Positions 15,324-31,782 of a DNA stretch of 64,000 bases are shown here, piece after piece. The notes under the pieces are model-generated. The model did no database searches. It was not told the DNA's origin and saw only the letters and a list, made by a program, of their open reading frames with translations. Each line of letters opens with the position of its first letter. Position 1 is the first letter of the stretch. Source of the stretch: Nesterenkonia ebinurensis (GTDB taxonomy: Bacteria > Actinomycetota > Actinomycetes > Actinomycetales > Micrococcaceae); contig NZ_VWNF01000045.1 in NCBI RefSeq assembly GCF_008711175.1, positions 62,001 through 126,000 of the forward strand. The letters run 5' to 3'. The position numbers and the translations under genes are program-made.

Positions 15324-15362
15324 CGTGTAGGGGTTGCCAATCCGGCGATAGCAACTGAATAT

Positions 15363-15435: not shown

Positions 15436-15452
15436 CGTAAGTTGAGAAATTC

Positions 15453-15485
15453 GAAACCTGCCCCGTCTGATGGCGGGGCAGTTTC
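15453..15485. terminator. Hairpin just downstream of tRNA-Ala
   Basis: An eight-base perfect stem CTGCCCCG/CGGGGCAG with an eight-base loop extends, through one bulged C, to GAAAC/GTTTC. It may terminate tRNA-Ala transcription or the recombinase message from the other side. It lies on the island side of the presumed attachment site, so it could also belong to the integrase recognition sequence. Confidence 0.5.
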
Positions 15486-17317: not shown

Positions 17318-17401
17318 ATCTCAATCATCTCAGAGAACATGACATATCTTGGCGTGTTTTTCCCTCAGACTGGTGGCATCAACCCGACCGGAAGGAACCC
17401 C

Positions 17402-17764
17402 ATGACTGCTCCGAACATGTTCATCATCTACGTCGCCGATGCTCCGACCGCTGCTCGTTTCTACAGCGACCTGTTCGACATCACGCCTAGTTTCGAGACG
17501 CCCGGCTTCGTCGCGTTCGACCTCTCCGACGGTGTGCAACTCGCGCTGTGGAACCTGCCCCAGGAGGAACTCGACCGCGCATCGGTACGCACCAGCGAGC
17601 TGTGCCTGGCGCTTCCGGCCAATGAGCTGATCGACGAGCAATTCCAGGCGTGGAAGAACAAGGGTGTGCGGATCGTGTCCGAGCCGCGGGACGAAGCGTT
17701 CGGTCGAACGTTCGTCGCGGCGGACCCCGACGGCAACCTGATCCGTGTGGCGCCCGTGGATTGA
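17402..17764 (+). CDS. VOC (glyoxalase/bleomycin resistance) family protein
   Basis: The 120-residue protein has a single VOC fold with two beta-alpha-beta-beta-beta units (MFIIYVADAPTAARFYSDLF; TFVAADPDGNLIRVAPVD). Such small dimeric proteins bind metal-dependent substrates or sequester drugs; none can be named here. ATG 17402 is favoured by the GGAAGGAA site. The divergent WYL gene is probably its regulator. Confidence 0.88.
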   Translation: MTAPNMFIIYVADAPTAARFYSDLFDITPSFETPGFVAFDLSDGVQLALWNLPQEELDRASVRTSELCLALPANELIDEQFQAWKNKGVRIVSEPRDEAFGRTFVAADPDGNLIRVAPVD

Positions 17765-17814
17765 AGTGCCGATGACGGAACGACCCAGAAAGTTCATCCC
17801 TGCTTCCACAACGC

Positions 17815-17856
17815 GCTCATGGTCATACCGTATAGTGATACGGTATGACCATGAGC
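17815..17856. promoter_or_regulatory. 42-bp perfect palindrome over the tetR start, probable TetR operator
   Basis: Two 19-base arms (17815-17833 and 17838-17856) are exact inverse complements around a four-base centre AGTG. The core reads GGTCATACCGTAT/ATACGGTATGACC. The palindrome contains a good -10 hexamer (TATAGT, 17831-17836) and both candidate tetR start codons (17845 and 17851). A regulator bound here would block its own promoter and start site. The position suggests a leaderless or near-leaderless transcript. The inverse repeat is seen directly; operator function is inferred. Confidence 0.8.
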
Positions 17857-18462
17857 AGAAACAAATCAACGCGCATACGGCGCGCGGGCGGGGCCAGGCG
17901 AATCCAGGTACTGGGTCAGGTTGTGGAGGTGCTGTCCGAGCGCGGATATGCCGCGACCCGGTTCGCCGATGTGTCGCAAACCTCAGGTGTCGCGGTGTCG
18001 ACGTTGCAGGGCTACTTCGGGTCCCGTGAGGACATGCTCATCGAGGCGCTTCAGGGCGCGACCTCGGGCGAGGTCGAGGCACTGGCCGAGCTAGCCTCCG
18101 GGTTCGAGGACCCGTGGCAGCAGTTGGTCGCGCTGGTCGACCGGGGCCTGTCGACACCTGTGCCGACGTGGCGGATGCTGATGGAGTTCTGGACCGCCGC
18201 CGCCCACGATGCCGAGCTGCGCGCCCACGCCGCCGTGCTGGCCGAGCAGTACCGACAGCCGTTCGTCGAGGCGGTAGAACGTGGGGTGGAGTCTGGCTCG
18301 TTCTCTCCCCGGTTCGACGTCACCGCGGTCGTGGACGTGGTGGTCGCGACGATGGACGGCCTGCTTTACCCGCTCGTGCTGGGGCACCGGGCCTCGGACG
18401 ATCTTGACTATCGCGATGTGGTGCTCGCTCAGCTCGCCTTCGTCCTCGGGACCGACGTATGA
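17845..18462 (+). CDS. TetR family transcriptional regulator
   Basis: The 205-residue protein has a TetR-type N-terminal HTH (RGYAATRFADVSQTSGVAVS then LQGYFGSREDM, residues 32-65) and an all-helical ligand-binding C-terminal domain. Starts at 17845 or 17851 are both possible and both lie inside the palindromic operator. Its stop overlaps the NmrA gene start (ATGA), so the regulator heads the operon it probably represses. The inducing ligand is unknown. Confidence 0.93.
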   Translation: MTMSRNKSTRIRRAGGARRIQVLGQVVEVLSERGYAATRFADVSQTSGVAVSTLQGYFGSREDMLIEALQGATSGEVEALAELASGFEDPWQQLVALVDRGLSTPVPTWRMLMEFWTAAAHDAELRAHAAVLAEQYRQPFVEAVERGVESGSFSPRFDVTAVVDVVVATMDGLLYPLVLGHRASDDLDYRDVVLAQLAFVLGTDV

Positions 18463-19286
18463 CGGTCCTGGTGACCGCCGCGAGCGGGAAAGTCGGCCGC
18501 GAAGTGCGAGCACAACTTGACGCGCGCGATGTCGACGTGCGGGCAGCGTCCCGGCGCAGCGCTATCTCGCTGGACTGGAGTGATCCGGCAACGTGGCCGG
18601 CCGTACTGGAGGGCGTGGACCGGGTGTTCCTGATCGTGCCCGGTGGTGACGACGGACACCGCTCGGTCACCGGGCTCGGCAGCGCGGTGGTGGAATTCCT
18701 CGACCTCGCCCAGCACCGCGGCGTCGGGCGTGTGGTGCTGATGACCGCCCTGGGCATGGAATACGCTCCGGCCGAGGTCGAGCAGCGCGGCGTCGAACTT
18801 CACCTGCAACGCAGCGGCCTGGAGTGGACGATCCTGCGGCCGAACTGGTTCTTCCAGAACCTGACCGACGGCCCGCTGCGCGCCCTCGCCGACGCACACG
18901 ACGGCGTGCTACGCCTACCGACCGGCGATGCCGCGGTCAGCTTCATCGACACCCGCGACATCGCGGCCGTCACCGTCGAGGTCCTCCTCGGCGATCACCA
19001 CGGCCGTGAGTACGCGCTGACCGGACCACACAGCCTAACCTTCACCGAGGTGGCTGCCGCCTGCCGGGACTCGCCGGTTCCGGTCGAGGCCTATGAGCCG
19101 ATCTCCGACCCGGACTTCCGCAGCACGGTCCTCGGCCTGGGCTGGCACCCGGACTATGTGAACACCGTCAGCGGCCTGTTTGCCACGATCGCCGCCGGCC
19201 ATGCTGAACCCGTCCTCCCCGATATCGCCGACGTGCTGTGCCGTGCGCCTCGGTCGTTCGCTGGGTTCCTCGCGGAAACGCGATGA
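18459..19286 (+). CDS. NmrA-like NAD(P)-binding protein (atypical SDR)
   Basis: The 275-residue Rossmann-fold protein opens MTVLVTAASGKVGREV, the glycine-rich dinucleotide-binding motif of atypical short-chain dehydrogenases, and has the family features LRPNWFFQNL and DTRDIAAVTVEVL. NmrA-like proteins either reduce quinones and other small electrophiles or act as redox sensors without catalysis. It is coupled to tetR upstream and to the ASCH-HTH gene downstream by four-base overlaps. The operon suggests detoxification, but the substrate is not known. Confidence 0.9.
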   Translation: MTVLVTAASGKVGREVRAQLDARDVDVRAASRRSAISLDWSDPATWPAVLEGVDRVFLIVPGGDDGHRSVTGLGSAVVEFLDLAQHRGVGRVVLMTALGMEYAPAEVEQRGVELHLQRSGLEWTILRPNWFFQNLTDGPLRALADAHDGVLRLPTGDAAVSFIDTRDIAAVTVEVLLGDHHGREYALTGPHSLTFTEVAAACRDSPVPVEAYEPISDPDFRSTVLGLGWHPDYVNTVSGLFATIAAGHAEPVLPDIADVLCRAPRSFAGFLAETR

Positions 19287-19870
19287 TCCTCACCGACCGG
19301 ATCGCTCACGGCGTCGCCGAAGGCTCGGTCACGCTCGCCTACCGCCGCTGGACGCGCCCTCGGGTCACACCCGGGGCGACGTTCCGCACGGTGGCCGGGA
19401 TCGTGCGCATCGAGGCAATTGACCGAGCCGACCTCGAACAGCTCGACCCCACCGCCGCGCAGGACGCCGGCTACGCCACCCTCGAGGAGCTGCTCGCCAC
19501 CTTCCGCGGGGACGACAGCATCCCGCTGTGGCGGATCGCTCTGGCGTGGGTCGGCTCCGATCCCCGAGAAGCGCTCGCGGAGAACGCAGTGCTCTCGCCC
19601 TCCGATATCGCCGACATCGACGCCCTGCTGGACCGTCTCGACGCCCGCACCCCGTGGGCACGCACCACGCTGAGCCGGATCGCAGAGCATCCGGGCACCA
19701 CCGCCGTGCAGCTCGTCGATGAGCTGCCGCTGGGCAAGGACTCCCTCAAACGCCGCATCCGCACTCTCAAAGAGCACGGCCTGACCCGCAGCCTGCCCAC
19801 CGGCTACGAACTTTCCGCCCGCGGACGGGCCTACCTGTCAGCTACCAGCCCCGAAAGGCCCGTCCCATGA
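19283..19870 (+). CDS. ASCH-like/PUA-fold protein with C-terminal winged helix
   Basis: The 195-residue protein begins at ATG 19283, overlapping the upstream stop. Its N-terminal half (residues 1-105) has the pattern of an ASCH domain: an RRWTRPRVTPGATFRTVAG segment forming the cleft strands and a WRIALAWVG strand; ASCH domains have a PUA-like fold and bind RNA or nucleosides. The C-terminal half (about 125-190) looks like a winged helix (TTAVQLVDELPLGKDSLKRR then IRTLKEHGLTRSL). The fusion suggests nucleic-acid binding and regulation. The domain calls come from pattern recognition and the function is not established. Confidence 0.65.
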   Translation: MILTDRIAHGVAEGSVTLAYRRWTRPRVTPGATFRTVAGIVRIEAIDRADLEQLDPTAAQDAGYATLEELLATFRGDDSIPLWRIALAWVGSDPREALAENAVLSPSDIADIDALLDRLDARTPWARTTLSRIAEHPGTTAVQLVDELPLGKDSLKRRIRTLKEHGLTRSLPTGYELSARGRAYLSATSPERPVP

Positions 19871-20634
19871 CCGAGCACACCGTCGGTGTTCCGAACCTCA
19901 TCGAACTCCAAACCCCCGACCCCGATGCAGCCGCCCAGTTCTACACCGAACTGTTCGGCTGGCGAATCGATGACAAGCCCCCGGCCGGCTATCGCTATGC
20001 CCGCGCGCTTGACGGCGCCGTCATCGCCGGGCTCCGACAAGCAGACGGCGACCAGCCCGCGGCGTGGACGGTCTACCTGACCACGAACGACATCGCCCGC
20101 GCCACGGGGCGTGCAGCCGAAAGCGATGCCCGCATTCTGCACGGTCCCGTAGACGTCCCGGGCCAGGGAGAAGTCGCAGTGATCGCTGATCCCACGGGCG
20201 CAGTCACCGGCCTCTGGCAGCCGCGACCGGGCTGGCATTTCGCCAGTCACGCCCCCGGCGCGTATGCCTGGGCCGAGCTTCTCACCCCGAGCGGCAGCAT
20301 CGCCGACGACTTCTACGCTGAGCTCGTCGGGCTCGGCTCGACACAGATCGGAGACGCAGACACCTACGACTACGCAGTCTGGACCCCGACCGGACATCAG
20401 GCACCCGTGGCCGGACGTCACCAGGTCGGTGTCCACGACGGTGGTCCTGCGCACTGGCGCGTCTACTTCACCGTTGACCCGGCCATCGGCACCGACCAAG
20501 TCCTGACGAACGCGCTTCGGCTCGGAGCGACCCTTGTCGCGGAGCCCAGCGACATCCCCGCCGGACGCATTGCCGTGCTGACCGACCCCGCTGGAGCGCA
20601 GTTCGCTCTGCTGACACCGGCACCGCGAACCTGA
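19867..20634 (+). CDS. Tandem VOC family protein
   Basis: The 255-residue protein contains two consecutive VOC modules (residues 8-120 and 128-250), each with the typical FYTELFGW or FYAELVGL helix and a closing DPTGA or DPAGAQFALL strand. This two-module form is widespread in actinobacteria and often annotated as glyoxalase or a hydroxylase-like enzyme. It is the last gene of the coupled tetR operon (ATGA overlap). Confidence 0.9.
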   Translation: MTEHTVGVPNLIELQTPDPDAAAQFYTELFGWRIDDKPPAGYRYARALDGAVIAGLRQADGDQPAAWTVYLTTNDIARATGRAAESDARILHGPVDVPGQGEVAVIADPTGAVTGLWQPRPGWHFASHAPGAYAWAELLTPSGSIADDFYAELVGLGSTQIGDADTYDYAVWTPTGHQAPVAGRHQVGVHDGGPAHWRVYFTVDPAIGTDQVLTNALRLGATLVAEPSDIPAGRIAVLTDPAGAQFALLTPAPRT

Positions 20635-20664
20635 CACCAGCACACGTGCAAGTAGCCCGAGCGT

Positions 20665-21609
20665 GTGTCGTCGATCGAGGAAGCCGCAACCGGCGATAGT
20701 CGCGCGTCCTTCGCCCCGATCCTCGCCCGCACGCGCTCGGTTCATCGACCCATCGCACCCGTCGCGTACGACTGCGTGAAGCTGATCTTCGTCCGGCACG
20801 GCTCGGCGATCCTGCTCAGCGAGTTCGGCGAGAAGCCGGTCAAGGTCGGCGACGTCGTGGCGCTCGGCGCGAACACTCTGTGTGGGAGTGAGCCCGAAGG
20901 CTCCATCACCGTTACGACACTCTACTTGGATCGCGACTACGTGATCGACCAGGTGTTCTGGCAGCACGCCGCGTTGCTGGCCGACCGATGGGATGCTCAG
21001 GACTTCGCCGACGAGCTGTATTCAGAACCGGCGCAAATACTCCGCCTCGGTGAAGATCGCGCTGGGATGCTCGCGCCGTGGTTGGACGAACTGGTCGCGC
21101 TGAGCCTCGACGGGCCGTCGCCGGAGCGGTTCTACCGGATGCAGGCATTGCTCTTCGCTGTGCTCGACGTGGTGACCCCGTTCGTGCGCACCACTGCCTC
21201 GCGCCGGTCTGCGTCACAACGGAAGTCCACCCGGCCCGGCCTCCCGCGTCACCGTGGCTTCGCCCCGCTGAGTGCCGAAGTGCGTCAAGCCGTCGAGCTG
21301 CTCCGCGGTGCACCTAGTGAACGGTGGACCCTCGACCGCCTCGCCGACACTGTGCACCTGTCACCAGCACAGCTGAGCCGGGTCTTCGTCGACGCCTACG
21401 GCAAGACACCGTTGGCGTACCTGACGATGCTTCGAGCCGAGCAGATGGCTCGGTTGCTCCGGGAAACCGAGGCGACCGTCGAGCAGGCAGCCCGAAGCGT
21501 CGGCTGGTCGAGTCGTAACCATGCAGCTCGTCTGTTCCGCCAGTGCGTGGGCGTGAGCCCTGGCCGTTACCGCAAGCTCAGCCGTAAGCCTCGCCGAGCG
21601 GTTGCGTGA
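20665..21609 (+). CDS. AraC family transcriptional regulator
   Basis: The 314-residue protein has a cupin-like N-terminal sensor (residues 35-110) and two C-terminal helix-turn-helix motifs of AraC type (WTLDRLADTVHLSPAQLSRV and ATVEQAARSVGWSSRNHAAR, ending with FRQCVGVSPGRYRK). The start is taken as GTG 20665, although the N-terminal 20 residues are uncertain. It follows the VOC gene by 30 bases and could be read with it. Ligand and targets are unknown. Confidence 0.88.
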   Translation: MSSIEEAATGDSRASFAPILARTRSVHRPIAPVAYDCVKLIFVRHGSAILLSEFGEKPVKVGDVVALGANTLCGSEPEGSITVTTLYLDRDYVIDQVFWQHAALLADRWDAQDFADELYSEPAQILRLGEDRAGMLAPWLDELVALSLDGPSPERFYRMQALLFAVLDVVTPFVRTTASRRSASQRKSTRPGLPRHRGFAPLSAEVRQAVELLRGAPSERWTLDRLADTVHLSPAQLSRVFVDAYGKTPLAYLTMLRAEQMARLLRETEATVEQAARSVGWSSRNHAARLFRQCVGVSPGRYRKLSRKPRRAVA

Positions 21610-21633
21610 CACTCCGTCGTGTTACACGGTTCA

Positions 21634-21984
21634 TTAGGCGCGGGCGCCAGCTGTGGTGGCATGGCGTTCGATGCGTCGATCACGAGACTCCGAAGTTCTC
21701 GCGCGGACGAGGAGGAACAGGCTGACCGGCCCCATCACGGTGAACTTCATCGCGTTCCATACCAGGATCAGAACCACCAGATGCAGCCAATCGGGCGCGC
21801 CGTCGGCGATGAGAGTAGTTACGACGCTCGCGCCGTACAGATAGGGGAGTGCTAGCAGCATCGCCGGGACGCCCCAACGTAGCCCGCGCCGGGTTCGAAT
21901 CGCGTCCAGTGCGATGTTGGTGGGCATGTAGCGGCGCAGGAAGTAGCGGGTGTGGACGCTGGCGGTCCAGATCAAGCGGAACAT
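21634..21984 (-). CDS. Small conserved membrane protein
   Basis: ATG 21984 behind GGAGAGGAC gives a 116-residue protein starting MFRLIWTASVHTRYFLRRYM, with two hydrophobic segments (about 37-60 and 66-94) and a basic C-terminus. I recall near-identical proteins, sometimes labelled sulfate permease, in actinobacterial plasmids and islands, but nothing in the sequence supports transport. It is convergent with the AraC gene. Confidence 0.75.
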   Translation of the reverse strand: MFRLIWTASVHTRYFLRRYMPTNIALDAIRTRRGLRWGVPAMLLALPYLYGASVVTTLIADGAPDWLHLVVLILVWNAMKFTVMGPVSLFLLVRARTSESRDRRIERHATTAGARA

Positions 21985-22388
21985 GGCGACAGTCCTCTCC
22001 GAGTCTCCGGCGACAAGGAATCGAAGGACTGTCCAGCCGAAGCCGTCTGGTCGTGCCACCACGTCCGGTGGTGGCGTAGCAGGTAGAGGCCGCCTGCCGA
22101 CAGAATATCGCGTTGTCATGAGGACAGGAAGTGCCCGACCTGTCCCGCCCTGTCGGTGTGCCGTGCGACCCTTGACCAGGCACGAGGTCGAGGAGCTCGC
22201 ACGGCCGACGGGACCGGGGAAGCTCCGAAGCTGCACGGAGGTCATTGATGCGCCGGGTCCGCCCTGACGTCTTGAGGACCGTTTGACTCTGGAGATGGGG
22301 TCCGCAGCGGCGCGGCTCACGACCAGGCTGAGCCCGGGATCGGTACGATAGAACAACGATGATCATCTGAGGACGAGGAGCGTGGAGC
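21985..22388. promoter_or_regulatory. Divergent regulatory region between small membrane protein and AAA+ gene
   Basis: The 404 bases hold no convincing gene; a longer minus-strand frame crosses it but lacks protein-like composition. An eight-base inverse repeat with a five-base loop (GCCACCAC/GTGGTGGC, 22055-22075) lies in the upstream region of the membrane-protein gene. A ribosome site (GAGGACGAGGAG) precedes the AAA+ start. No canonical promoter pair stands out. Confidence 0.45.
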
Positions 22389-23366
22389 ATGGCACGAGGA
22401 GACCTGCTCTTGGCTCTCGTGCAGTCCGGCGCAGGTGGCGACGACCTTGCCTTCCGCCGCGCGGCCGAAGCGTTGATCGCCGAGGAAGAGAATAAGAAGC
22501 ACAACGTGCTTGCCTCGCAACTTACCGACGCATTGCGACGGAAGCGCTCGGGGACAACTAGCAGCGTGACGGCGCTGGCCCGGAACGAGGCCACGCGGGG
22601 CCTCTTCCATGAGCAAGAGCCGCAGCGGCGACTATCCGATCTGGTTCTACCGGTCGAAGCCCGCCAGGCTGTCAGCCAGCTCGTGGAAGAGCATCATCGA
22701 CGCGATCTTCTACGAAGCCACGGAGTGGAACCTCGCCATCGCCTGCTCTTCGTCGGGCCACCCGGTGGCGGTAAGACGTCGTTGGCAGAGGCGGTCGCGA
22801 CCGAGTTGGCGGTGCCATTGCTAAGCGTGCGTTATGAGGGCCTGATCGGCAGTTTCCTCGGAGAAACCGCATCAAGAATGGAGGCCCTTTTTGATGCGGT
22901 TCGAGTTCGACCATGCGTTCTCTTCTTCGACGAGTTCGACGTCGTCGCAAAAGAGCGCGGTGATACGCACGAGACGGGAGAGATCAAGCGAGTCGTAAGC
23001 TCGCTGCTTCTCCAGGTCGACCGACTGCCGAGTCACGTCATCGTCATTGCCGCCACGAACCACGCAGAACTGCTGGATCGCGCCGTGTGGCGGCGGATGC
23101 AACTTCGACTCGACCTTCCGTATCCCACGAGAGCCGGAAAAATCGAGTGGTTGCAGGCGTGGACCGCACGTACGGAAGTGAGCCTTGGACTCACGCCGAG
23201 GACTGTTGCAGACCGCCTCGGGCGAGTCAGCTTTGCCGAGCTCGAAGAGTTCGCGCTCGATGTGCAGAGACGTTCCATACTTTCGGGACCGGAGCCAGAC
23301 TCGGTGGCCGTCGTTCAGCAGTTGCTCAAACAGTGGGCCGGCCGCGCTAGCGTCAGCGAGAGCTAA
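22389..23366 (+). CDS. AAA+ ATPase of the AAA-subtilase pair (IetA-like)
   Basis: The 325-residue protein has an N-terminal helical region (1-80) and one CDC48/FtsH-like AAA+ domain: Walker A GPPGGGKTS (123-131), Walker B LFFDEFD (178-184), sensor-1 Asn in AATN (221-224) and arginine-finger candidates in VWRRMQ. Such ATPases remodel or present client proteins. The stop codon overlaps the start of the subtilase gene (TAATG), so the two are made together. An AAA+ ATPase paired with a subtilase matches, from memory, the IetAS anti-phage module described by Gao and colleagues in 2020. Defence is inferred from this pairing and the island location. Confidence 0.85.
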   Translation: MARGDLLLALVQSGAGGDDLAFRRAAEALIAEEENKKHNVLASQLTDALRRKRSGTTSSVTALARNEATRGLFHEQEPQRRLSDLVLPVEARQAVSQLVEEHHRRDLLRSHGVEPRHRLLFVGPPGGGKTSLAEAVATELAVPLLSVRYEGLIGSFLGETASRMEALFDAVRVRPCVLFFDEFDVVAKERGDTHETGEIKRVVSSLLLQVDRLPSHVIVIAATNHAELLDRAVWRRMQLRLDLPYPTRAGKIEWLQAWTARTEVSLGLTPRTVADRLGRVSFAELEEFALDVQRRSILSGPEPDSVAVVQQLLKQWAGRASVSES

Positions 23367-25879
23367 TGCCACCGGACGACCGGGCTTCGACGTCGAGGCC
23401 TGTCATTCTGGGCAGGATTGCCGCACCGCGACCAATTCGACCGCCCCGAGGTGGCGGAGGTCGTGCTCGTTTCGCGGACCCCGAGGCGCGGTCCCGACGT
23501 ATCGACGTACGCTTCGACGAAGCGAGTGCCGCCCTCGGCGACCAGATTCAGATATCTGAGTCGATCCACGCGGCCGATCCCCAGCTGGTCTTGGTTTTCG
23601 AAGCGCTTGACGAGCAGCTTGACCTAAGTGCCGTAGCCGAAAAGGTCGGCATTGAGATCCTCGTTGAGGCTGAGAATGTGATATCACCCGACGATGATTT
23701 CCAACTCGTCAGTCAGCAACCGCGGAATCCTTACATCTCCTCATGTCTCCACGCTGTCTGTACGAATCAGCAAGCGTTCGACAATTTGCTTTCTTTATGG
23801 CGCGCCTGGAGGGAGACTGAGCAGCTTCCTCGGGGCTACTCGCCGTTGCGCGACCTCTTCGCGCACCTGAAAGACATACGGCCGTGGGGGCCGCAAGATC
23901 GGCTCAGAACGATCGACTGGGACGAGTACTTCGCCGGGCGCATTGACGACCAGCCACACAACATTGAGATTGAACTTTGGTATCGACGCAGCTCTCGAAC
24001 ACGCGAAGAGAGCCAGCGTCAGGTTGCTGCCCTCATCGAGCAAGCGGGAGGTCAAGTTACAACGACCGCAATCATCGACCAGATCGGCTACCACGGCCTC
24101 AAGTGCACCGTCCCAACTCAGATGCTCCGCGACCTCGCTTCGGGCAATCATGACGCCGTACGCGTCGTCAGGTCGACTAACGTGATGTATCTGCGCGTGG
24201 CAGGACAAGCTCTACCGGTTGTCGGCCCTCCGACCGACGTGCGGGGTCAGACCGATGGTGAGGCTCCAACAGGCGATCCGGTCCTCTGTCTTCTGGACGG
24301 CGCCCCGGCAGCGAACCACCCTCTGCTCCGCGACCGAGTCATCGTCCATGACCCCGACGACCTGCTTGGCCGAGCCACTGTCGACGAACTCAGACACGGG
24401 ACATGGATGACCTCGGTAGCGGTGTGGGGAGACCGCGGAGCAAACGAGCTGCCAGCCAGACGCCCTGTGCTTGTCCGTCCGGTCCTGACCCCCGCCGACG
24501 ACACGCTCCACCGATCCGAGGAACTACCGCCGACCGAGTTGGTTCCCGATCTGATGTGGCGCACCTTCCGCGAGTTGTTCGAGGGCACTGACACTCAGCC
24601 CGCGGCGGGTGAGAGCATCGCCATTGTCAATATCTCGATAGGTGACCCGGCATCGCCTTTCGACACGATCTTGTCCTCGTGGGCGCGGATGATCGACTGG
24701 CTGAGCTACGAGTACGGCGTGGTCGTGATCGTGTCAGCGGGAAACCATCCGAATCTCACACTGAGCCCGACAACATCGAGCGAAGTCGCTGCACTACGTG
24801 GCGCTGACCGACGCCAAGCCATACTTGACGCGCTACACCGACAACAGAACGAGCGCAGGCTCCTGGCGCCAGCAGAGTCGGTCAACGCTCTCAGTGTCGG
24901 TGCGATTCATGACGATGCCTCATCCGCCGCGCCGCAGGGCTACGCCGTCGATCCCACCGACAACCTGCTATCCATTAGCCCCGTCTCGCCTACTGGGAGC
25001 GGGTATCGAAGGAGCATCAAGCCAGACCTCGCTGCCAACGGCGGTCGCGTGTTCTTCCGCGACGGCGTCACAGCTCAGGAATCCGTCGTCTTCACTGGCG
25101 TCTCTGCACTTGGACCTGGCATTCGAGTCGCGACACCCACCCAGTTCCGCGAGACACACATCGCTGGAACGAGCCCTGCCGCCGCGTTGGTTTCGAAGCG
25201 GGCCGCACGCCTTCACGACGTGATCGACGAGATCACCGCGGGCGTTCCCATCACCCGTAGGCAGCGAGCCTCGGCGATCAAGGCGCTCTTGGTTCATGGA
25301 TCGGCCTGGCCGCAGGAACTGGCCCACCACCCGATACCAGCAGAGATCGCTCTCGGCAATGGAGCTGCTGTTCGCGACTACGCCGACGGCTGTGCCACCA
25401 ACGAGGCCGTAGTCATCTTCCTTGGGTCCATCGGAGCTGCTGAGGAACAAGAACTCCTCTTTCCGTTGCCGGACGGATTGAGCGTTCGCGAGACGAAGCG
25501 CATCGATGCGACCCTTGCGTGGCTCACGCCAGTCAACTGGCGCCACCGGCAATACCGTAAGGCCGCGCTGTCGTTCGTCAAACCGGCGGGATCGATTCCA
25601 GCGCTGGGGACGCCGAGTGGTCTGGCGTCGGACGTGACGACGCGAGGCGCATCTTCTGTTCAACACCAGTCTTGGGAGATGGAGAAGGCCTTTGCCTCTG
25701 GGCAGGGTTCGAACATGGCCGTCCGTGTCAAGTGCTACGAGCAGGCAGGTGGGCTGCTCGGTGAACGCGTCGACTTCGCCGTCGCTCTCTCACTATGGGT
25801 TGCTCCCGCGCTCAATGTCGACGTGTACAGCCAGGTTAGGACGCAGGTTGAAACTCGCGTGCCCATCCTGCCGCAGTGA
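23366..25879 (+). CDS. S8 subtilisin-like serine protease of the AAA-subtilase pair (IetS-like)
   Basis: The 837-residue protein has an uncharacterised N-terminal half and a subtilase domain from about residue 300. A full catalytic set is visible: Asp311 (CLLDGAP), His344 (RHGTWMTS), oxyanion Asn460 (VSAGNHPN) and nucleophile Ser603 (AGTSPAAALVS). The sequence around Asp and His is diverged from secreted subtilisins. There is no signal peptide, so it is an intracellular protease. Translation is coupled to the AAA+ gene. The partner ATPase could recognise an infection cue and deliver or activate substrates, but neither trigger nor target is known. Confidence 0.87.
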   Translation: MPPDDRASTSRPVILGRIAAPRPIRPPRGGGGRARFADPEARSRRIDVRFDEASAALGDQIQISESIHAADPQLVLVFEALDEQLDLSAVAEKVGIEILVEAENVISPDDDFQLVSQQPRNPYISSCLHAVCTNQQAFDNLLSLWRAWRETEQLPRGYSPLRDLFAHLKDIRPWGPQDRLRTIDWDEYFAGRIDDQPHNIEIELWYRRSSRTREESQRQVAALIEQAGGQVTTTAIIDQIGYHGLKCTVPTQMLRDLASGNHDAVRVVRSTNVMYLRVAGQALPVVGPPTDVRGQTDGEAPTGDPVLCLLDGAPAANHPLLRDRVIVHDPDDLLGRATVDELRHGTWMTSVAVWGDRGANELPARRPVLVRPVLTPADDTLHRSEELPPTELVPDLMWRTFRELFEGTDTQPAAGESIAIVNISIGDPASPFDTILSSWARMIDWLSYEYGVVVIVSAGNHPNLTLSPTTSSEVAALRGADRRQAILDALHRQQNERRLLAPAESVNALSVGAIHDDASSAAPQGYAVDPTDNLLSISPVSPTGSGYRRSIKPDLAANGGRVFFRDGVTAQESVVFTGVSALGPGIRVATPTQFRETHIAGTSPAAALVSKRAARLHDVIDEITAGVPITRRQRASAIKALLVHGSAWPQELAHHPIPAEIALGNGAAVRDYADGCATNEAVVIFLGSIGAAEEQELLFPLPDGLSVRETKRIDATLAWLTPVNWRHRQYRKAALSFVKPAGSIPALGTPSGLASDVTTRGASSVQHQSWEMEKAFASGQGSNMAVRVKCYEQAGGLLGERVDFAVALSLWVAPALNVDVYSQVRTQVETRVPILPQ

Positions 25880-25915
25880 TTGCTTCACTGTCCTGAGATC
25901 GAGCCCAGAGGGCGG

Positions 25916-28222
25916 CTAGCTCGACTGGACGGCATTGGTGACGCCATAGCTTAGGGAGTAGAGGCGATCCCGGAGAGCCTGAGGGTCGGGGAGCGTCGAA
26001 CGCGGCTCATCAGCAAGTCTGAAGTCACGCTGAATCTTGCGGATGTCATCGAGAACCTTGTCTGCTTCAGCCGCATCCCGTGGAAGCTGAGCGCTCAGGT
26101 TCTCCAGCAGTGCGGTTACCTCGTTCTTGCGGATGTTGTTCGGGTGGTCCGCAATGAAGTTCTTACGAAGACGCTTGATGATGGTGGAGATCTTGGCATG
26201 GGCGTGGTCACGCATTGCCTCGCGTTGCTTGGATTCGATCAGGGCGAGGGTAGGTCGGAAGTTTTCGTACAGGTCCCGCTGAACCTTGAGCGTGGCCTTG
26301 CTGTCAAGGGCGAGGTCGATCACTGATCTCGCGAAAGGTACCTTTTCGACCTCTAGCGGCCGTTTAAGATCACCCTTCTGGCTGGCTTCGACTGCGGCCC
26401 ACTGTAGTAGCTTGAAGGTCTTCTCACCCTTGACCGTCTTCACGTCGGACCAATTCGCCAGGAAGGCTTCCGCTTGGTCACGGGGAAGGACCGTTTGAGC
26501 GAGCTTCTTAATGGCCTCGTTCGCAAGTGAAATCGGAACGAGATCCTCCAACTCCACGATGCCTTCACGATCCTCTCCGTCTATCGTGGCAGCGACCGTG
26601 AACATCAGAGACTTCGGCAGAAGTCCCTTCATGGCCTTAACATCTTCGATGGCCTTCAGGCCGTCCGTGTCGTTGTCGACAAGGACGAGCACCGCCGGCT
26701 TATCCTCGTCGCGACCGCGAGCGAGATGGACCATGTATGAGACGTTGCCCGCGCCGCCGCAGGGCACCAGGGTGAGGGTGTTCAGGTCGAGCGCGTCGCC
26801 ATCGGGAGAGACCTTGCGGGCGATGGCGCTGGCACCCGCAAGAAGTATCGGGTCGGCCTGGCCTTCAAGCATGAGATTGCAGGAACTGATGAAGGTCGTC
26901 TCGGCGACGAAACCGCCAAGGGACGATCGAAGCGGCTCATAGTGATTGCGGCCCGCGTTGTTGACTACGCGAGTCCCTTCCTCGCCGTCGCCCTTCTCGA
27001 GAACCCGGATTCGTTCGGCATGGTTCTTATCGATCAGAAACGGCGAGTGTGTTACATACACGACTTGCACGGGCGTTGTCTGATCGTCCTCGGGATGCGC
27101 GAATGCCCGGAAGATCCGAAGTAGATCCTGCTGTCCGGAGTTTGACAAGAAGGCATCGGGCTCATCCATGAGGAGGATCTCGCCATCCTCCGCCGTGTGC
27201 GATAGGTACTGCACGAAGTAGCTGAGGAAGTACTTGAGGCCCTGGCTTCGCTCCTTGAACGTATAGTCACTGCCAGTGCGGTCGCGGATCGTGAAAACGA
27301 GGTCGAAATCGCGCAGTCGGAGTCGCAAGGCGAAATCTCTGTCTTGAGTCCACCACCGTCTGAAGTTAAGAGAGTCCGCAAGCTTGCGGTTCATCTTGTC
27401 AACGAGCGCCTCGGCATAGCCCTCAGACGTGTGTACGGCGTTCTTCAACTCGGCAAACTCGGATGGTGTGATGCCGGCAACGTCGATCAACAGCCGACGA
27501 GCCAAGTCCCACTGGTCGATTAGATCTTGGTCAGGCGTGCCATCTTTGCCGTCATAGGCGGGGCGGGTTCCACTGCCCGGTGTTTCTTCAAGCGCCTCGG
27601 GGTTGTCGCGAACGAACAGCATCCGCGAGAGCCAACCTTGCCTGGTTCGGTTCGTCCTCGAATGATCGCCCGCCAGATACGCGATCTCGACGCTGTCAGG
27701 CAGAGGTATCCGAGCGTCGATCCTGAAGGACTTTGGCAGTTCCAGCGCGTCCGGAACCTCATCCAGCTCGACCAGTTCGTCGCCGAGATAGATGACAACG
27801 CGGTCATGGAAACGGAACAGGTGGAAGGAATCGACTTCTGTAGCTTCCCACTCCTGCAGGCCGAGGATGACCTCGGCTTGCTCCGGCGTCAAGTCAGTGA
27901 ATTCTCCTCCGAACTCTGGCAGCTCGGGTGCGTTGTCTTCGTTGAACTCCGTGGAGTATCGGCAGAAGTCGCGTTTGACGTAGCCTTCGCCAGTGAGAAG
28001 CGCCTCGATGGCACCGAGCAGCTGGCTCTTTCCCGCTTCGTTCGCGCCTACCACCGTCGTCACCTCGGGTTCCAGCGGGACTCGCACGAAAGGAAAAAAC
28101 AGCTCCTCCGCACCAAGCTGGTCCCACGGATCAGGACGCGCCGTGTCATCCTCCCGACTCTTTCGGAGGTAGTCGAAGTTGAACGACCGGAAGAACCGGA
28201 TGTACAAGGTCGTCAGTCTCAT
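25916..28222 (-). CDS. OLD-family nuclease: ABC-type ATPase with TOPRIM domain
   Basis: The 768-residue protein combines an ABC/SMC-like ATPase and a TOPRIM nuclease. Walker A is GANEAGKS (59-66); the signature and Walker B regions appear in KERSQGLKYFLSYF and EILLMDEPDAFLS, followed by the switch histidine in VYVTHSPF. The TOPRIM acidic residues are Glu453 (LEGQADP) and Asp516/Asp518 (LVDNDTDG). OLD nucleases cut DNA in a metal-dependent way; the founder protects P2 lysogens against lambda. There is no UvrD-like helicase beside it, which suggests the stand-alone class. It is convergent with the subtilase gene, with 36 bases between the ends. A role in defence is inferred. Confidence 0.85.
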   Translation of the reverse strand: MRLTTLYIRFFRSFNFDYLRKSREDDTARPDPWDQLGAEELFFPFVRVPLEPEVTTVVGANEAGKSQLLGAIEALLTGEGYVKRDFCRYSTEFNEDNAPELPEFGGEFTDLTPEQAEVILGLQEWEATEVDSFHLFRFHDRVVIYLGDELVELDEVPDALELPKSFRIDARIPLPDSVEIAYLAGDHSRTNRTRQGWLSRMLFVRDNPEALEETPGSGTRPAYDGKDGTPDQDLIDQWDLARRLLIDVAGITPSEFAELKNAVHTSEGYAEALVDKMNRKLADSLNFRRWWTQDRDFALRLRLRDFDLVFTIRDRTGSDYTFKERSQGLKYFLSYFVQYLSHTAEDGEILLMDEPDAFLSNSGQQDLLRIFRAFAHPEDDQTTPVQVVYVTHSPFLIDKNHAERIRVLEKGDGEEGTRVVNNAGRNHYEPLRSSLGGFVAETTFISSCNLMLEGQADPILLAGASAIARKVSPDGDALDLNTLTLVPCGGAGNVSYMVHLARGRDEDKPAVLVLVDNDTDGLKAIEDVKAMKGLLPKSLMFTVAATIDGEDREGIVELEDLVPISLANEAIKKLAQTVLPRDQAEAFLANWSDVKTVKGEKTFKLLQWAAVEASQKGDLKRPLEVEKVPFARSVIDLALDSKATLKVQRDLYENFRPTLALIESKQREAMRDHAHAKISTIIKRLRKNFIADHPNNIRKNEVTALLENLSAQLPRDAAEADKVLDDIRKIQRDFRLADEPRSTLPDPQALRDRLYSLSYGVTNAVQSS

Positions 28223-28402
28223 CGGTCGCTCCTACCCGCCGTTGCGCACGGCCGAGGCGACCGTGCTCTCAGGGTATCGACATGCGCCGACATCGACGCC
28301 GAGATCGGAGTCGGGGCACAACGTGTCGCGGCGCCACGGTCGTGCCTGCGATGCAAGTGCCACCCCGGACAGAACTTTGTCACGGGCTGGACACCGACCG
28401 CA

Positions 28403-28840
28403 CTAGCGTAGACGACCATGAGAGTCACGCGTGGCGACTCCTCGGTCAAGGATGTAGGTACGAACGGTACCTGCGGAGAACCCGAGATTGGTGCCAACGC
28501 GTTCAAGCGACTCGCCCGCCGCGTACCGGCGGACCATCTCGTCTACCTCGCAGGCGGACGGCGTTGCGCGCCGTAACTGCACGCCGCGGGCACGAAGCAG
28601 GGCCGCTAGTCGTTGCCGGCTGACGTCAAGGGCAGGGGCAATCTCGCGAAGCGTCGCTCCGGCCTCGTAGCGAACCTCAGCTGCGAGCAAAGCCGCCTCG
28701 CTGACCCGTGTCTGCTGCCGGATGAGGGGTGGCTCACGGCGAGCGAAACTCTTGGTCCTCTGTCTGATCTGCCAGTGCCTCACGGCCATGCGAACCAGGG
28801 GCGGGGCAAGTTTCGATAATGCTCCCGTTAGGCCCACCAT
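28403..28840 (-). CDS. Double helix-turn-helix protein
   Basis: From ATG 28840 the product has 145 residues. Two similar HTH units follow each other (AGATLREIAPALDVSRQRLA, about 60-79, and AGESLERVGTNLGFSAGTVR, about 108-127), the second ending DRGVATRDSHGR. Such repeats resemble the DNA-binding tail of resolvases and small regulators carried with recombinases. It is transcribed toward the OLD gene 180 bases away and may regulate it. A longer upstream frame exists but crosses the hydrolase remnant. Confidence 0.7.
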   Translation of the reverse strand: MVGLTGALSKLAPPLVRMAVRHWQIRQRTKSFARREPPLIRQQTRVSEAALLAAEVRYEAGATLREIAPALDVSRQRLAALLRARGVQLRRATPSACEVDEMVRRYAAGESLERVGTNLGFSAGTVRTYILDRGVATRDSHGRLR

Positions 28841-28861
28841 TGAAGATGTACTAGAACTCCC

Positions 28862-29257
28862 GACAGTGCCGGCGGTGGACTGGCGGCCGGGGTGACAATC
28901 GCCGCACGGGATGCCGGTGTTCCGGTGGCCAGGCAAATCCTGATCTATCCGATGCTCGATGACCGGACCACCACACCCGATCCGCACCTGGTCCCGTTTA
29001 TGACTTGGACCCATGACGACAACTACACAGCTTGGCAGGCGCTGCTGGGCCAGGACATGGGCGGAGCCAAGGTGAGTTCGCTTGTAGTGCCCGCGCGTCT
29101 GGACGATCATGCGGGGCTCGCACCGGCATACATCGAGGTCGGAGAGCTTGACATCGTCCGCCCGGGGGTTCCGCACGGCTTTGAGGTGATCGCGCTGGGC
29201 ACGGAACTTTCAGACCGTGCCTTCGAGGACCGGCGACGAGTAATCACCTCCTTCTAG
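28862..29257 (+). pseudogene. Alpha/beta hydrolase (HSL-type esterase) remnant
   Basis: The frame starts abruptly at the nucleophile motif DSAGGGLAAG of a hormone-sensitive-lipase-type esterase; the preceding half with the oxyanion HGGG motif is absent. It continues normally (RQILIYPMLDDRTTTP, GLAPAYIEVGELDI), then jumps directly to PHGFE, losing roughly 24 residues before the catalytic histidine. A GTG at 28892 could start translation, but the product would lack the nucleophile. Decay is clear from both losses. Confidence 0.85.
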
Positions 29258-29524
29258 GCGCGAGCGCATCCGTCTCGGACGATTCTGGTTCGGGTGAGAG
29301 GAAGACGAGTTGTTGCGGAGATGTCGGCAGCTGTGACGCGCCAACCGTGTTCGGCGAGTCAGAGTGCTTCGGTTCCGGTTCCGCAGCCAGCGTCCAGCGC
29401 TGTACCCGCACGCAGGTACGCGGTATCGGTCAACAGATAGGGGTTGACCGGGAGTTGGTGCTCGCTGTTCGAGGTGGCGGGTGCCCAGTGGTGCTCCCAA
29501 GTAGTCCTTGTCAAAGTCGGCCAT
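29254..29524 (-). pseudogene. Class I SAM-dependent methyltransferase remnant (frameshift and premature stop)
   Basis: The gene begins at ATG 29524, overlapping the stop of the flavoprotein gene. After MADFDKDY an extra T in a TT run shifts the frame; restoring it gives HHWAPATSNSEHQLPVNPYL and the SAM motif ALDAGCGTGTEAL, then TGA where a tryptophan codon would be expected, and LAEHGWRVTAADISAT. Homology then fades and the 3' two thirds are missing. The order flavoprotein then methyltransferase is, as far as I recall, a common actinobacterial pair, so this is an eroded operon partner. Confidence 0.85.
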
Positions 29525-30483
29525 CAGGCACCCACCGTGTTGCTGCTGTCTGCGATGGTGCGGTCTGCGCGAGCGAAGACCATCTCGGTGTTGATCGTCA
29601 TCGCCACTCGCGCCCCGTTTGCCGCGGACTCGCTGACCTGCATGCCGGGGTTCACCACATTGCCCGCCGCCCAAACACCGGGCACGGAGGTGTGCCCGGC
29701 AGGATCGGCGACGATGGCGACACCCGCGGCGTTCTCTGCGACATCCACCCCGAGCTCATCGAGGCCGTCGAGGCGTGCCGTGGTCAGAGCGGGAACAGCC
29801 AACGCATCCAGCCCGACCTGCCCTCCGTCGTCCATGACCGCTGCCGTGAGTCGGTCATCGACCACGTCGACACCATGCAGCTGTCCCGGCACGATCGTGA
29901 TCCCGAGAGCGCGAACCTTCTCGAGCTGGTCGGCGGGGAACTCGAGCCCGTTGGGGAAGAACGTCATCTGCTCGCTCCACTGATGGAACAGCAGTGCCTG
30001 CATCGCCGACATCGGTCCGGTCGCGAGGAGGCCGATCCGCTGATCGCGGATCTCCCAGCCGTGGCAGTACGGGCAGTGCACGATATCCCGGCCCCACCGC
30101 TCGGCAAGACCGGGAATCGAAGGAAGGTCATCCCGCACCCCTGTCGCGATCAGCAGCTGGCCAGCTCGAATCGTCGAGTCGTCGTTGAGCACGAGAGTGA
30201 AACCGTCTTCAGCAGAGCCGGACGCGCGATGAACATCCCCCTGGAGGTTGCGAGCACCGTAAGAAGCCGCCTCTTGACGTCCACGCTCCAAAAGCTCGAG
30301 TGGGTTCACACCCTCCTGGCCGAGCAGCCCGTGCGCTGCGGCCGCGGGGGCATTCCTGGGCGCGCCTGCGTCGATGACAACGGCGCTGCGGCGCGCACGT
30401 GCAAGAATCAGTGCCGCGCTCAGCCCGGCCGAGCCGCCGCCGATGATCGCGACGTCGTATACCTGATCGTGTGTGGTGCCCAT
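29524..30483 (-). CDS. Thioredoxin-reductase-like NAD(P)/FAD-dependent oxidoreductase
   Basis: The 319-residue flavoprotein has the FAD-binding motif IIGGGSAGLSAALILARARR near the N-terminus, a redox CxxC in HCPYCHGWE (about 137-145) and the second FAD motif GVWAAGNVVNPGMQV. The NADPH-binding GxGxxA motif is weak (GLLATGPMSAMQ), as in ferredoxin- or bacillithiol-type members, so the reductant is uncertain. It overlaps a broken methyltransferase gene by four bases. It probably reduces a small dithiol protein or metabolite in the cytosol. Confidence 0.9.
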   Translation of the reverse strand: MGTTHDQVYDVAIIGGGSAGLSAALILARARRSAVVIDAGAPRNAPAAAAHGLLGQEGVNPLELLERGRQEAASYGARNLQGDVHRASGSAEDGFTLVLNDDSTIRAGQLLIATGVRDDLPSIPGLAERWGRDIVHCPYCHGWEIRDQRIGLLATGPMSAMQALLFHQWSEQMTFFPNGLEFPADQLEKVRALGITIVPGQLHGVDVVDDRLTAAVMDDGGQVGLDALAVPALTTARLDGLDELGVDVAENAAGVAIVADPAGHTSVPGVWAAGNVVNPGMQVSESAANGARVAMTINTEMVFARADRTIADSSNTVGA

Positions 30484-30734
30484 TACGCTGTCCTCTCGTT
30501 CTTCCGCGATGCATACCCAGAATCACTCAGACCAGATCCGCTGGCAATTATTCTTGCTGAACGGCAAAATCGAGGCATGAGCGAACACACCAATCTCGTC
30601 AGTCGGCAAGGCCAGCGCGCCCACATACGTGCTTCCGACGGCGACCGCGATGCAGCATCGGCATTGACACGCTACTACCTCGAACCCGGCAAAAAGTAGT
30701 TGGTCTTGATCGTCTTACTCTTGCGGTTCTTGGG

Positions 30735-31472
30735 CTACGCGCGGGTGGCGTGAGCCGCTAGCGTATCGGCGGTGGGGCTGTGAGGGTGGTCGGTCAGATG
30801 CTGGTCGAGCAGTGCCGCCCCATGAAGCATGGCTCGCGCTCGTGCAGTGAACGCCATCTGTCGTTCTCCAAGTGCGGCACGGAGACCGTCGCCGCTGCCG
30901 GTTCTGCGTAGTTCTTCGATGATGGGCCTGATACGCGTGAAGCGGTAATGCCCCTGCCGCAGGAGCCGGATCACACGAGCATCTCGCACATCCTCTACAT
31001 CATAGGATCGGTGCCGTCTGTAGGGCAGGCGTTCTGGTGCGAGGAGGCCAGCGTTCTCCCAGACACGAAGAGCGGAGGTGCGGACGCCGAGTAGGTGCGC
31101 GAGTTCCCCAATGGACATCGGTACCCGGCGGTACAACGGCTCATCCAATGCAGTGTTGATCGCGTTGAGTGCCTGCACCGTCTGAGCGAGCCTTTGGCGC
31201 TGCTCGTGAAGCGCTTGATGACTGGCGTCGATGAGCGCCAGAGCCTTGGCGACGCTGCCCCGAACGACGGACGTCATGATGGTGCGGGCCGTCGGTGCGC
31301 CGTGGCCTCGGGCGAGGGCCTGGTAGCAGTGCAGGGCGCTGAGGTGTTCATCGGTGTAGATGCGGTAACCGGTGGCGGTGCGCTCGGCGGCGGGGAGGAC
31401 TCCTGCGGCTTCGAGGTTGCGTACCTGTTGGGTCGATACACCCGCGCTGGCGGCGAGATCGGCTGGCTTCAT
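30735..31472 (-). CDS. MerR-type regulator with two HTH domains (TioE-like)
   Basis: The 245-residue protein starts at ATG 31472 behind GGGAGAGGGG. It carries one MerR HTH at the N-terminus (MKPADLAASAGVSTQQVRNL) and a second near residue 128 (MSIGELAHLLGVRTSALRVW), matching the TioE-type layout. MerR proteins usually bend promoter DNA and respond to drugs or oxidants. It is divergent from a small gene 109 bases away, with an inverse repeat between them. Confidence 0.88.
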   Translation of the reverse strand: MKPADLAASAGVSTQQVRNLEAAGVLPAAERTATGYRIYTDEHLSALHCYQALARGHGAPTARTIMTSVVRGSVAKALALIDASHQALHEQRQRLAQTVQALNAINTALDEPLYRRVPMSIGELAHLLGVRTSALRVWENAGLLAPERLPYRRHRSYDVEDVRDARVIRLLRQGHYRFTRIRPIIEELRRTGSGDGLRAALGERQMAFTARARAMLHGAALLDQHLTDHPHSPTADTLAAHATRA

Positions 31473-31506
31473 CCCCTCTCCCTTCGATTCCGTGTTGAGG
31501 GTTCGT

Positions 31507-31542
31507 GAGCGGATTCGCCGCATTGAAATGAGGAATCCGCTC
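31507..31542. promoter_or_regulatory. Inverse repeat between MerR and small divergent gene
   Basis: Ten-base perfect arms GAGCGGATTC (31507-31516) and GAATCCGCTC (31533-31542) are separated by 16 bases. A second, shorter pair (TCAACT at 31551 and AGTTGA at 31573) follows. The location midway between the divergent starts suggests an operator for the MerR protein. The repeats are seen; binding is inferred. Confidence 0.5.
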
Positions 31543-31581
31543 GCAGAGTATCAACTAGCAGTTCAACGATACAGTTGAAGT

Positions 31582-31782
31582 ATGGGAAATAAGGAGAACG
31601 CACCGATTCGGTTCCGTCTTGACGTTGACCTCTCCGCCGTGGCGGGCGACCCTACGGAGGAACTATCGCGGGTGCTGCGATACTGGGCGGGCAACATGAA
31701 GCACTACGACTTCGAACAACCCGCCACGGAGACGGTGTACGACTCGGAATACCGCGAGGTCGGCGGCTGGTCACTCGCCTGA
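31582..31782 (+). CDS. Small protein of unknown function, divergent from merR gene
   Basis: The 66-residue acidic product starts MGNKENAPIRFRLDVDLSAV and ends GGWSLA. It has no membrane segment. ATG 31582 is near promoter-like AT-rich sequence and the amino-acid composition is protein-like. It resembles small uncharacterised proteins of actinobacterial mobile DNA. The divergent MerR regulator may control it. Confidence 0.6.
   Translation: MGNKENAPIRFRLDVDLSAVAGDPTEELSRVLRYWAGNMKHYDFEQPATETVYDSEYREVGGWSLA

What the first reader, a model, noticed from the sequence alone, without database searches (positions are those of the whole stretch)
22389..25879. Coupled AAA+ ATPase and subtilase, an IetAS-like defence module in a tRNA-Ala island
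Seen: a CDC48-like AAA+ gene and an intracellular subtilase with a complete Asp311/His344/Asn460/Ser603 set overlap by TAATG, in an island beside tRNA-Ala. Known: as I recall, Gao et al. 2020 described ietAS as an ATPase plus subtilase pair protecting against phage. Inference: this is a diverged member. The subtilase has a 300-residue N-terminal region with no recognisable domain that may hold the sensor or substrate specificity.
Basis: partly seen in the sequence, partly recalled or inferred. Interest (0 to 1): 0.8.

Follow-up and report, generated by a model that had tools for sequence, protein, structure and literature searches.

The report
IetAS phage-defence gene pair, Nesterenkonia island
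Two overlapping genes of a Nesterenkonia bacterium encode an ATP-driven ring protein and a protein-cutting enzyme of the already described IetAS anti-phage family; it is an intact, diverged member, and its predicted shape suggests how the cutter may be kept switched off.

Summary
In detail: ORFs 22389-23366 (AAA ATPase, 325 aa) and 23366-25879 (subtilase, 837 aa) overlap by TAATG, with the stated catalytic residues. Both proteins match PADLOC IetA and IetS models end to end (E 5e-145 and 1e-256), but stay far below NCBIfam's equivalog cut-offs: a diverged IetAS member. The tRNA-Ala island is real: about 26 kb separates the tRNA from the next core gene, against 1.3-3.0 kb in four related genomes.

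New detail: the IetS N-terminus is conserved in the family. An AlphaFold model (mean pLDDT 81.5) puts a beta-alpha-beta-beta-alpha-beta domain directly before the protease, and fold matches include pro-Tk-subtilisin and ProN-Tk-SP. I propose a protease with a built-in inhibitor, controlled by a threading AAA ring. That is inferred, not shown.

Side finding: four IMG/VR contigs carry IetA with intact motifs and no IetS. Overall: a new member of a known kind, modest interest.

The parts
22389..23366 (+). ietA: single-ring AAA ATPase, 325 aa, with ~75-residue N-terminal region
   Evidence: PADLOC IetA PDLC04232 1-322 of 330, E 5.2e-145; Pfam AAA PF00004
22755..22778 (+). Walker A of IetA (residues 123-130, GPPGGGKT)
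22845..22868 (+). pore-loop-1-like motif of IetA (residues 153-160, IGSFLGET; [FY]LG); assignment as pore loop by position, recalled from AAA unfoldases
   Evidence: F/Y-L-G in 13 of 13 rows and 32 of 32 rows; the two sets share rows
22917..22934 (+). Walker B of IetA (residues 177-182, VLFFDE)
23091..23096 (+). putative arginine fingers of IetA (R235, R236, in DRAVWRRMQ)
   Evidence: invariant in 13 of 13 rows; role recalled
23366..25879 (+). ietS: S8 subtilase, 837 aa, start overlaps ietA stop (TAATG)
   Evidence: PADLOC IetS PDLC04233 residues 10-833, E 1.3e-256; Pfam Peptidase_S8 305-645
23396..23419 (+). conserved N-terminal peptide of IetS (residues 11-18, RPVILGRI; family pattern x-P-[LVI]-[LI] with a hydrophobic residue at 18)
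   Evidence: P12 33/36, L/V/I at 13 33/36, L/I at 14 34/36, L/F/V/I at 18 36/36, R/K at 11 23/36; block 11-20 has mean pLDDT 90
23480..23935 (+). IetS N-terminal alpha/beta region (residues 39-190) with RPWGPQDR (172-179)
   Evidence: conservation; secondary structure
23954..24205 (+). IetS pro-domain-like domain (residues 197-280), beta-alpha-beta-beta-alpha-beta
   Evidence: DSSP of the model; Foldseek/VIA alignments with pro-Tk-subtilisin and ProN-Tk-SP
24263..25345 (+). IetS subtilisin-like catalytic domain (residues 300-660; D311, H344, N460, S603)
25358..25801 (+). IetS C-terminal beta-rich domain (residues 665-812)
   Evidence: VIA alignment with KP-43 and SubHal spans model 6-810, Z 25.4
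25916..28222 (-). OLD-like gene: split ABC-type ATPase plus weak TOPRIM-like match, 768 aa; convergent neighbour, facultative
   Evidence: homologue beside ietAS in Williamsia; in 2 of 24 loci
20672..28837 (.). block shared at 94% DNA identity with N. alkaliphila F10, where its flanks are different
15363..15436 (+). tRNA-Ala(GGC), left edge of the variable region
15269..16333 (-). ORF with Recombinase and zinc-ribbon domains of a large serine recombinase but no resolvase domain; overlaps the tRNA; the DNA is also present after the tRNA in N. alkaliphila and G025
   Evidence: DNA shared to 16376. Upstream DNA was not searched for the missing domain
15437..41420 (.). about 26 kb insertion relative to four related genomes

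Best explanation
A diverged, intact IetAS anti-mobile-element system carried on a genomic island. IetA is a single AAA ring that very probably threads polypeptide. IetS is a cytosolic subtilase built like a zymogen: an N-terminal peptide and a pro-domain-like domain sit before the catalytic domain and are kept in the mature protein. In the resting cell IetS is latent. On infection IetA, acting as sensor or as the arm that reacts to a phage-made protein, uses ATP either to pull the inhibitory N-terminal part off IetS or to feed it unfolded substrate, and IetS then cuts phage or host proteins and stops the infection. Shown here: gene pair, family match, intact motifs, selection, island. Supported by a predicted model: the zymogen-like build. 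Inferred: latency, trigger, target and outcome. Identity as IetAS about 0.95; the latch mechanism about 0.45.
For: Full-length PADLOC IetA/IetS matches. ietA lies directly upstream of ietS in 24 of 24 loci given to (23 found through IetS, so biased; several are close relatives; one IetA is cut by a contig end; in L020 the IetS was seen only by profile). Catalytic tetrad 36/36. Walker A, Walker B, arginine and [FY]LG motifs 32/32 rows above 380 bits, window included. Purifying selection. Model of IetS (27-row alignment, mean pLDDT 81.5, pTM 0.86) with residues 198-278 in beta-alpha-beta-beta-alpha-beta order before the catalytic domain. Foldseek aligns it over 529-541 columns with pro-Tk-subtilisin entries 3wiv, 3wiu, 2e1p (TM by target 0.56-0.61) and lists intracellular subtilisin precursors. 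VIA aligns 459 residues, model 175-829, with ProN-Tk-SP 3afg (Z 21.8). Mean conservation is 1.95 bits for residues 41-190, 1.86 for 197-280, 2.03 for the protease 301-660, but 0.77 for the linker 281-300. Island setting here; relatives on 100 plasmid records and in IMG/VR contigs. One paper reports IetAS in Pf phages associated with phage resistance of isolates (PMC11878078, passages).
Against: No experiment, and this branch lies far from NCBIfam's IteA/IteS equivalog clade. Coordinates of the model were not available, so I could not check that the pro-domain-like domain or the N-terminal peptide lies over the active site. The pro-Tk-subtilisin alignments have rmsd 6.6-7.3 A and TM by query of only 0.30-0.32, and ProN-Tk-SP 6.7 A, so domain placement may differ. 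Ferredoxin-like folds are common. No Pfam I9 match and no conserved cleavage site in the linker. A first model with 5 rows failed (pLDDT 38).
Confidence: 0.6

Rival explanations
1. IetAS works as a toxin-antitoxin-like or plasmid/island-stabilising pair: IetA holds a toxic protease in check, and loss or blocking of IetA frees it.
For: 100 of 72,556 plasmid records carry IetS relatives (E <= 1e-5; 61 cover at least 80% of the query), 46 typed conjugative. One paper files IetAS under TA systems while stating that its mechanism is unknown (PMC11878078, passages). Four IMG/VR contigs carry IetA without IetS; the only two IetS loci without IetA (L142, L147) start within 315 bases of the locus end.
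Against: IetA keeps all motifs of an active threading ATPase, more than a stoichiometric antitoxin needs (inference). IetS without IetA was not searched for systematically.
Confidence: 0.2
2. A house-keeping ATP-dependent protease for damaged proteins, not a defence system.
For: The best PDB sequence matches of IetA are Cdc48/p97-type ATPases; AAA plus protease is the usual build of quality-control machines (recalled).
Against: Sporadic: 2 of 30 genomes of the genus and 9 of 396 of the phylum sample (E <= 1e-20), both counts with the own genome. Lies on an island in a block with different flanks in N. alkaliphila. PADLOC names it as defence; NCBIfam does so only below its cut-offs.
Confidence: 0.07
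3. The working unit here is three genes: IetAS plus the OLD-like ATPase/TOPRIM protein (25916-28222).
For: The OLD-like gene is adjacent to ietAS in the window and N. alkaliphila, and in Williamsia on the other side and on the same strand as ietAS; it is under purifying selection.
Against: Found in only 2 of 24 ietAS loci (L006, L007, flanks of varying length). In the phylum sample it occurs in 4 of 396 genomes and coincides with IetS only in the window's own genome. Relatives stand without IetAS in the stretches shown, next to type I restriction genes in Deinococcus but not in Rhodococcus.
Confidence: 0.08
4. The system acts against incoming plasmids or conjugative elements rather than phages.
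For: Plasmid-borne relatives, two of them seen next to conjugation or Tn7-like genes; no match in 50,697 phage records at E <= 1e-5.
Against: Complete IetAS copies occur in IMG/VR contigs. Being carried on plasmids does not show what is targeted.
Confidence: 0.1

Closest known systems
IetAS (PADLOC IetA PDLC04231/04232, IetS PDLC04233/04234; original description Gao et al. 2020, recalled, paper not held)
   Same: AAA ATPase followed by S8 subtilase, full-length profile match, same gene order in 24 loci
   Different: Far below the NCBIfam IteA/IteS equivalog cut-offs; 26% identity over 544 columns to L153, the one of four IetS relatives scanned that scores highest with IteS, itself below that cut-off
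Intracellular subtilisins with LIPY/F pro-peptide (PDB 2wv7, 2x8j, 6f9m; PMC6220982, passages)
   Same: Subtilase of the cytosol; a short hydrophobic, proline-containing N-terminal peptide; fold match
   Different: IetS has an extra ~280 residues between that peptide and the protease; its motif is x-P-[LVI]-[LI], theirs [LVI]-[IFLV]-P-[YFH]; inhibition not shown
Pro-subtilisins with inhibitor I9 pro-domain (pro-Tk-subtilisin 2e1p/3wiv; ProN-Tk-SP 3afg)
   Same: Predicted domain of the same order and place before the catalytic domain
   Different: No I9 Pfam match at E <= 1; domain nearly as conserved as the enzyme, no conserved cleavage site seen
Cdc48/p97, FtsH, PAN type AAA unfoldases
   Same: Walker A/B, arginines, [FY]LG motif
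   Different: Single AAA domain, own ~75-residue N-terminal region, protease on a separate chain of the S8 family

Membership tests
IetAS (broad, PADLOC) | First gene matches an IetA profile over its length | tested here: met
   PDLC04232, residues 1-322, E 5.2e-145
IetAS (broad, PADLOC) | Second gene matches an IetS profile over its length | tested here: met
   PDLC04233, residues 10-833, E 1.3e-256
IetAS (broad, PADLOC) | Two adjacent genes, ATPase first | tested here: met
   TAATG overlap; 24 of 24 loci
IetAS (broad, PADLOC) | Catalytic residues of ATPase and subtilase intact | tested here: met
IetAS (broad, PADLOC) | Protection against phage | not testable with these tools
   needs plating assays
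NCBIfam IteA/IteS equivalog clade (NF042959, NF042956) | Score above the curated cut-off | tested here: not met
   218.6 of 510 and 65.7 of 900 bits
Peptidase S8 (subtilase) | PF00082 above gathering score, Asp/His/Ser triad with oxyanion Asn | tested here: met
   66.7 bits, cut-off 21.8; tetrad
Inhibitor_I9 pro-domain family | Pfam I9 match before the protease | tested here: not met
   only PF00082 reported for P0002 at E <= 1
Inhibitor_I9 pro-domain fold | beta-alpha-beta-beta-alpha-beta domain docked on the protease | tested here: inconclusive
   topology and joint alignment seen; docking not visible without coordinates
OLD-family nuclease (neighbour P0003) | ABC-type ATPase plus TOPRIM | tested here: inconclusive
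   AAA_21/AAA_15 above cut-off, OLD-like_TOPRIM 16.7 of 23.2 bits

The most novel reading that the evidence does not exclude
IetA is the brake or key of an inbuilt-inhibitor subtilase, and phages exploit this: the orphan IetA proteins on IMG/VR contigs (two full length, two whose homology begins only at residue 72-73, all with intact ATPase motifs) are counter-defence decoys that join IetA rings and keep IetS off.
Probability: 0.12. Interest if true: 0.75.

Novelty: new member of a known kind. Interest (0 to 1): 0.3.

Why it matters
The mechanism of IetAS is called unknown or not fully elucidated in the passages of two papers seen here. The family alignment and model give concrete, cheap tests: delete residues 1-20 or the 197-280 domain of IetS, mutate the [FY]LG motif of IetA, and co-express phage-borne orphan IetA. 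If the latch idea is right, IetAS would be a bacterial immune protease released by a AAA machine.

Tried and rejected
AlphaFold with 5 rows (collected 85) gave pLDDT 38 and was not used; 27 rows gave a usable model. PDB search by sequence found no IetS at E <= 0.01 and two weak subtilase hits with a profile. A duplicated tRNA 3' end as attachment site was sought in the window and not found (one search used a generic motif that does not fit this tRNA). The small membrane-protein gene next to ietA occurs beside both own copies, but similar DNA lies at many other places in the genus (window about 21700-22100), so I rejected it as a component. The OLD-like gene was tested as a third component and judged facultative. 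Literature: nine searches; no listed title or abstract start was a mechanistic study of IetAS, and I looked into passages of PMC12755874, PMC11878078 and PMC12839542 (no mention of IetAS). The library lacks preprints and most subscription papers, so absence means little. The viral structure library gave generic subtilases as its best matches.

Rows dropped before counts: of 45 rows in A5 plus A7, 4 repeats, 4 rows of 780 aa or less and one near-identical row were left out, leaving 36. IetA-like proteins of 380 bits or less in IMG/VR loci (among them 14 loci between 150 and 343 bits without an IetS hit) were not counted as orphans, as they may not be IetA.
Full report
What is there. The window belongs to a Nesterenkonia genome: the best named relative, IetS 98% identical, is N. 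alkaliphila F10, and G003, in the same genus group, has the same match at the same contig coordinates and is taken to be that genome (inference). Two overlapping genes, 22389-23366 and 23366-25879, encode a AAA ATPase and a subtilase.

What it is. PADLOC's IetA and IetS profiles match both proteins end to end. NCBIfam's IteA is the top hit and IteS the only hit of the two proteins, but far under their equivalog cut-offs, so the pair belongs to the broad IetAS family and not to that clade. The own genome carries a second IetAS pair on another contig (IetA 51-52%, IetS 30-32% identical), also a PADLOC match. IetS was found in 2 of 30 genomes of the genus and 9 of 396 of the phylum sample (E <= 1e-20), both with the own genome; in 100 of 72,556 plasmid records, 61 of them over at least 80% of the query; in none of 50,697 phage records; and in IMG/VR contigs. 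In each of 24 loci examined, ietA lies upstream of ietS; the loci were found mostly through IetS, are partly related, and one IetA is cut by a contig end.

The island. In most of the listed genus matches (the lists are cut) the DNA of the window is conserved up to the tRNA-Ala; in N. alkaliphila and G025 it goes on to 16376, past the recombinase ORF. Sequence conserved in the genus resumes at 41420. In four genomes with both flanks close together the gap is 1.3 (G027), 2.0 (G006), 1.9 (G017) and 3.0 kb (G013), against 26.0 kb here. I chose these four from the lists; for the other genomes I did not work out the arrangement, and in several the right-flank match lies far away or on another contig. 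An ORF with the Recombinase and zinc-ribbon domains of a large serine recombinase, without a resolvase domain, overlaps and follows the tRNA. No repeat of the tRNA end was found in the window. The inner block 20672-28837 (AraC regulator, small membrane protein, ietAS, OLD-like gene, HTH gene) occurs at 94% identity in N. alkaliphila with different flanks and on another contig of that draft than the tRNA-Ala region, which suggests that the block moves separately. The block is 61.9% G+C against 64.7-66.8% around it.

Selection. Against N. alkaliphila the NG86 dN/dS is 0.028 (ietA), 0.098 (ietS) and 0.071 (OLD-like), so all three are maintained. Synonymous sites against Williamsia are saturated for ietA and ietS, so no ratio is given.

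IetS build. The catalytic tetrad is invariant in 36 of 36 rows. The N-terminal region is conserved: P12 33/36, W174 35/36, D178 35/36, R179 35/36, E203 34/36, G229 36/36, M274 32/36. Mean conservation is 1.95 bits (41-190), 1.86 (197-280), 0.77 (281-300), 2.03 (301-660) and 1.93 (665-812). The model from 27 sequences (mean pLDDT 81.5, pTM 0.86) shows residues 198-278 as beta-alpha-beta-beta-alpha-beta, then the subtilisin fold, then a beta-rich C-terminal domain. VIA places it closest to SubHal and KP-43 (Z 25.4, rmsd 3.2-3.3, 388-390 residues). Foldseek lists PCSK9, pro-Tk-subtilisin and intracellular subtilisin precursors, with rmsd 6.6-7.3 for pro-Tk-subtilisin. VIA row 3afg (ProN-Tk-SP) covers model 175-829 at rmsd 6.7. 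In 17 of the 50 VIA rows the alignment begins at model residues 2-7, so the extreme N-terminal peptide may pack on the protease core; block 11-20 has mean pLDDT 90. Without coordinates I cannot say where it lies.

IetA build. Walker A, Walker B, the WRR arginines and an [FY]LG motif at the place of pore loop 1 are kept in 32 of 32 rows. That the motif is a pore loop is by alignment position, recalled from AAA unfoldases.

Mechanism. The most likely reading is an ATP-driven threading ring paired with a latent subtilase. In intracellular subtilisins a short N-terminal pro-peptide with a LIPY/F motif binds across the active site and inhibits (PMC6220982, passages), a precedent for locking a cytosolic subtilase. 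IetS has both a short conserved N-terminal peptide and a pro-domain-like domain that, judging by conservation, are kept for function. How infection releases the lock, and what is cut, is open.

The OLD-like neighbour. It is adjacent in Williamsia too, upstream and on the same strand there, behind a type I restriction R gene. Of the 24 ietAS loci searched it is in two, L006 and L007. In the phylum sample 4 of 396 genomes have it and only the own genome has both. I regard it as an independent island-mate.

Orphan IetA. One search aligned 31 distinct IetA ORFs above 380 bits, 27 of them from IMG/VR loci. Four of those (L055, L057, L064, L070) have no IetS on the whole record (nine records searched, the three controls and the two fragment cases matched). 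L056 and L059 keep only about the first 150 and 100 residues of IetS; L060 and L077 are cut by a contig end. L070's IetA lies just before terminase genes, L064 has a terminase gene nearby, L057 a YqaJ recombinase and an endolysin-type gene; for L055 the one neighbour scanned gave no Pfam hit. In L064 and L070 homology begins at residue 72-73. The ATPase motifs are intact in all four. These records are of unknown completeness.

Verdict. Interest rests on the testable build of IetS and on the orphan IetA genes.

Noticed in passing
L055:8001-8969, L057:7983-8972, L064:7836-8852, L070:7992-8780 (IMG/VR contigs): IetA homologues with intact ATPase motifs but no IetS on the record; in L064 and L070 homology begins at residue 72-73, L070 precedes terminase genes. 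Possible counter-defence or regulator.
   Followed up: partly
L056:8001-9517, L059:1574-2908: IetA followed by only the first ~150 or ~100 residues of IetS.
   Followed up: partly
L005:10383-13951 (own genome, G000:C46): Second IetAS pair beside a DUF4062 protein, a 1149-aa nSTAND5 protein directly downstream, a phage-type integrase and a TrwC relaxase.
   Followed up: partly
PHROG 3757 and PHROG 3964: Both listed as unknown function; they match IetA (E 5.9e-79) and IetS (E 3.3e-46) of the window, so they could be renamed.
   Followed up: no
L009:9989-12516: IetS of Antrihabitans sp. YC2-6 is split into two frames around residue 525, a frameshift or sequencing error.
   Followed up: no
L030:2899-9505 (Shewanella plasmid): IetAS lies just after TnsD and TnsE genes, with one small regulator gene between, as possible cargo of a Tn7-like element.
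   Followed up: no
window 28892-29254: Alpha/beta hydrolase fragment (Pfam Abhydrolase_3, profile positions 89-179 of 210) directly at the right edge of the mobile block.
   Followed up: no
L158:1843-1897 and 2653-2726 (G013, between tRNA-Ala and the next core gene): Two short stretches 78-80% identical to window 28764-28837, the right edge of the ietAS block; possible trace of the same mobile element.
   Followed up: no
L038:5001-7346 and L007:3116-8673: Relatives of the OLD-like protein sit next to type I restriction genes in Deinococcus and Williamsia, though not in Rhodococcus L037.
   Followed up: partly
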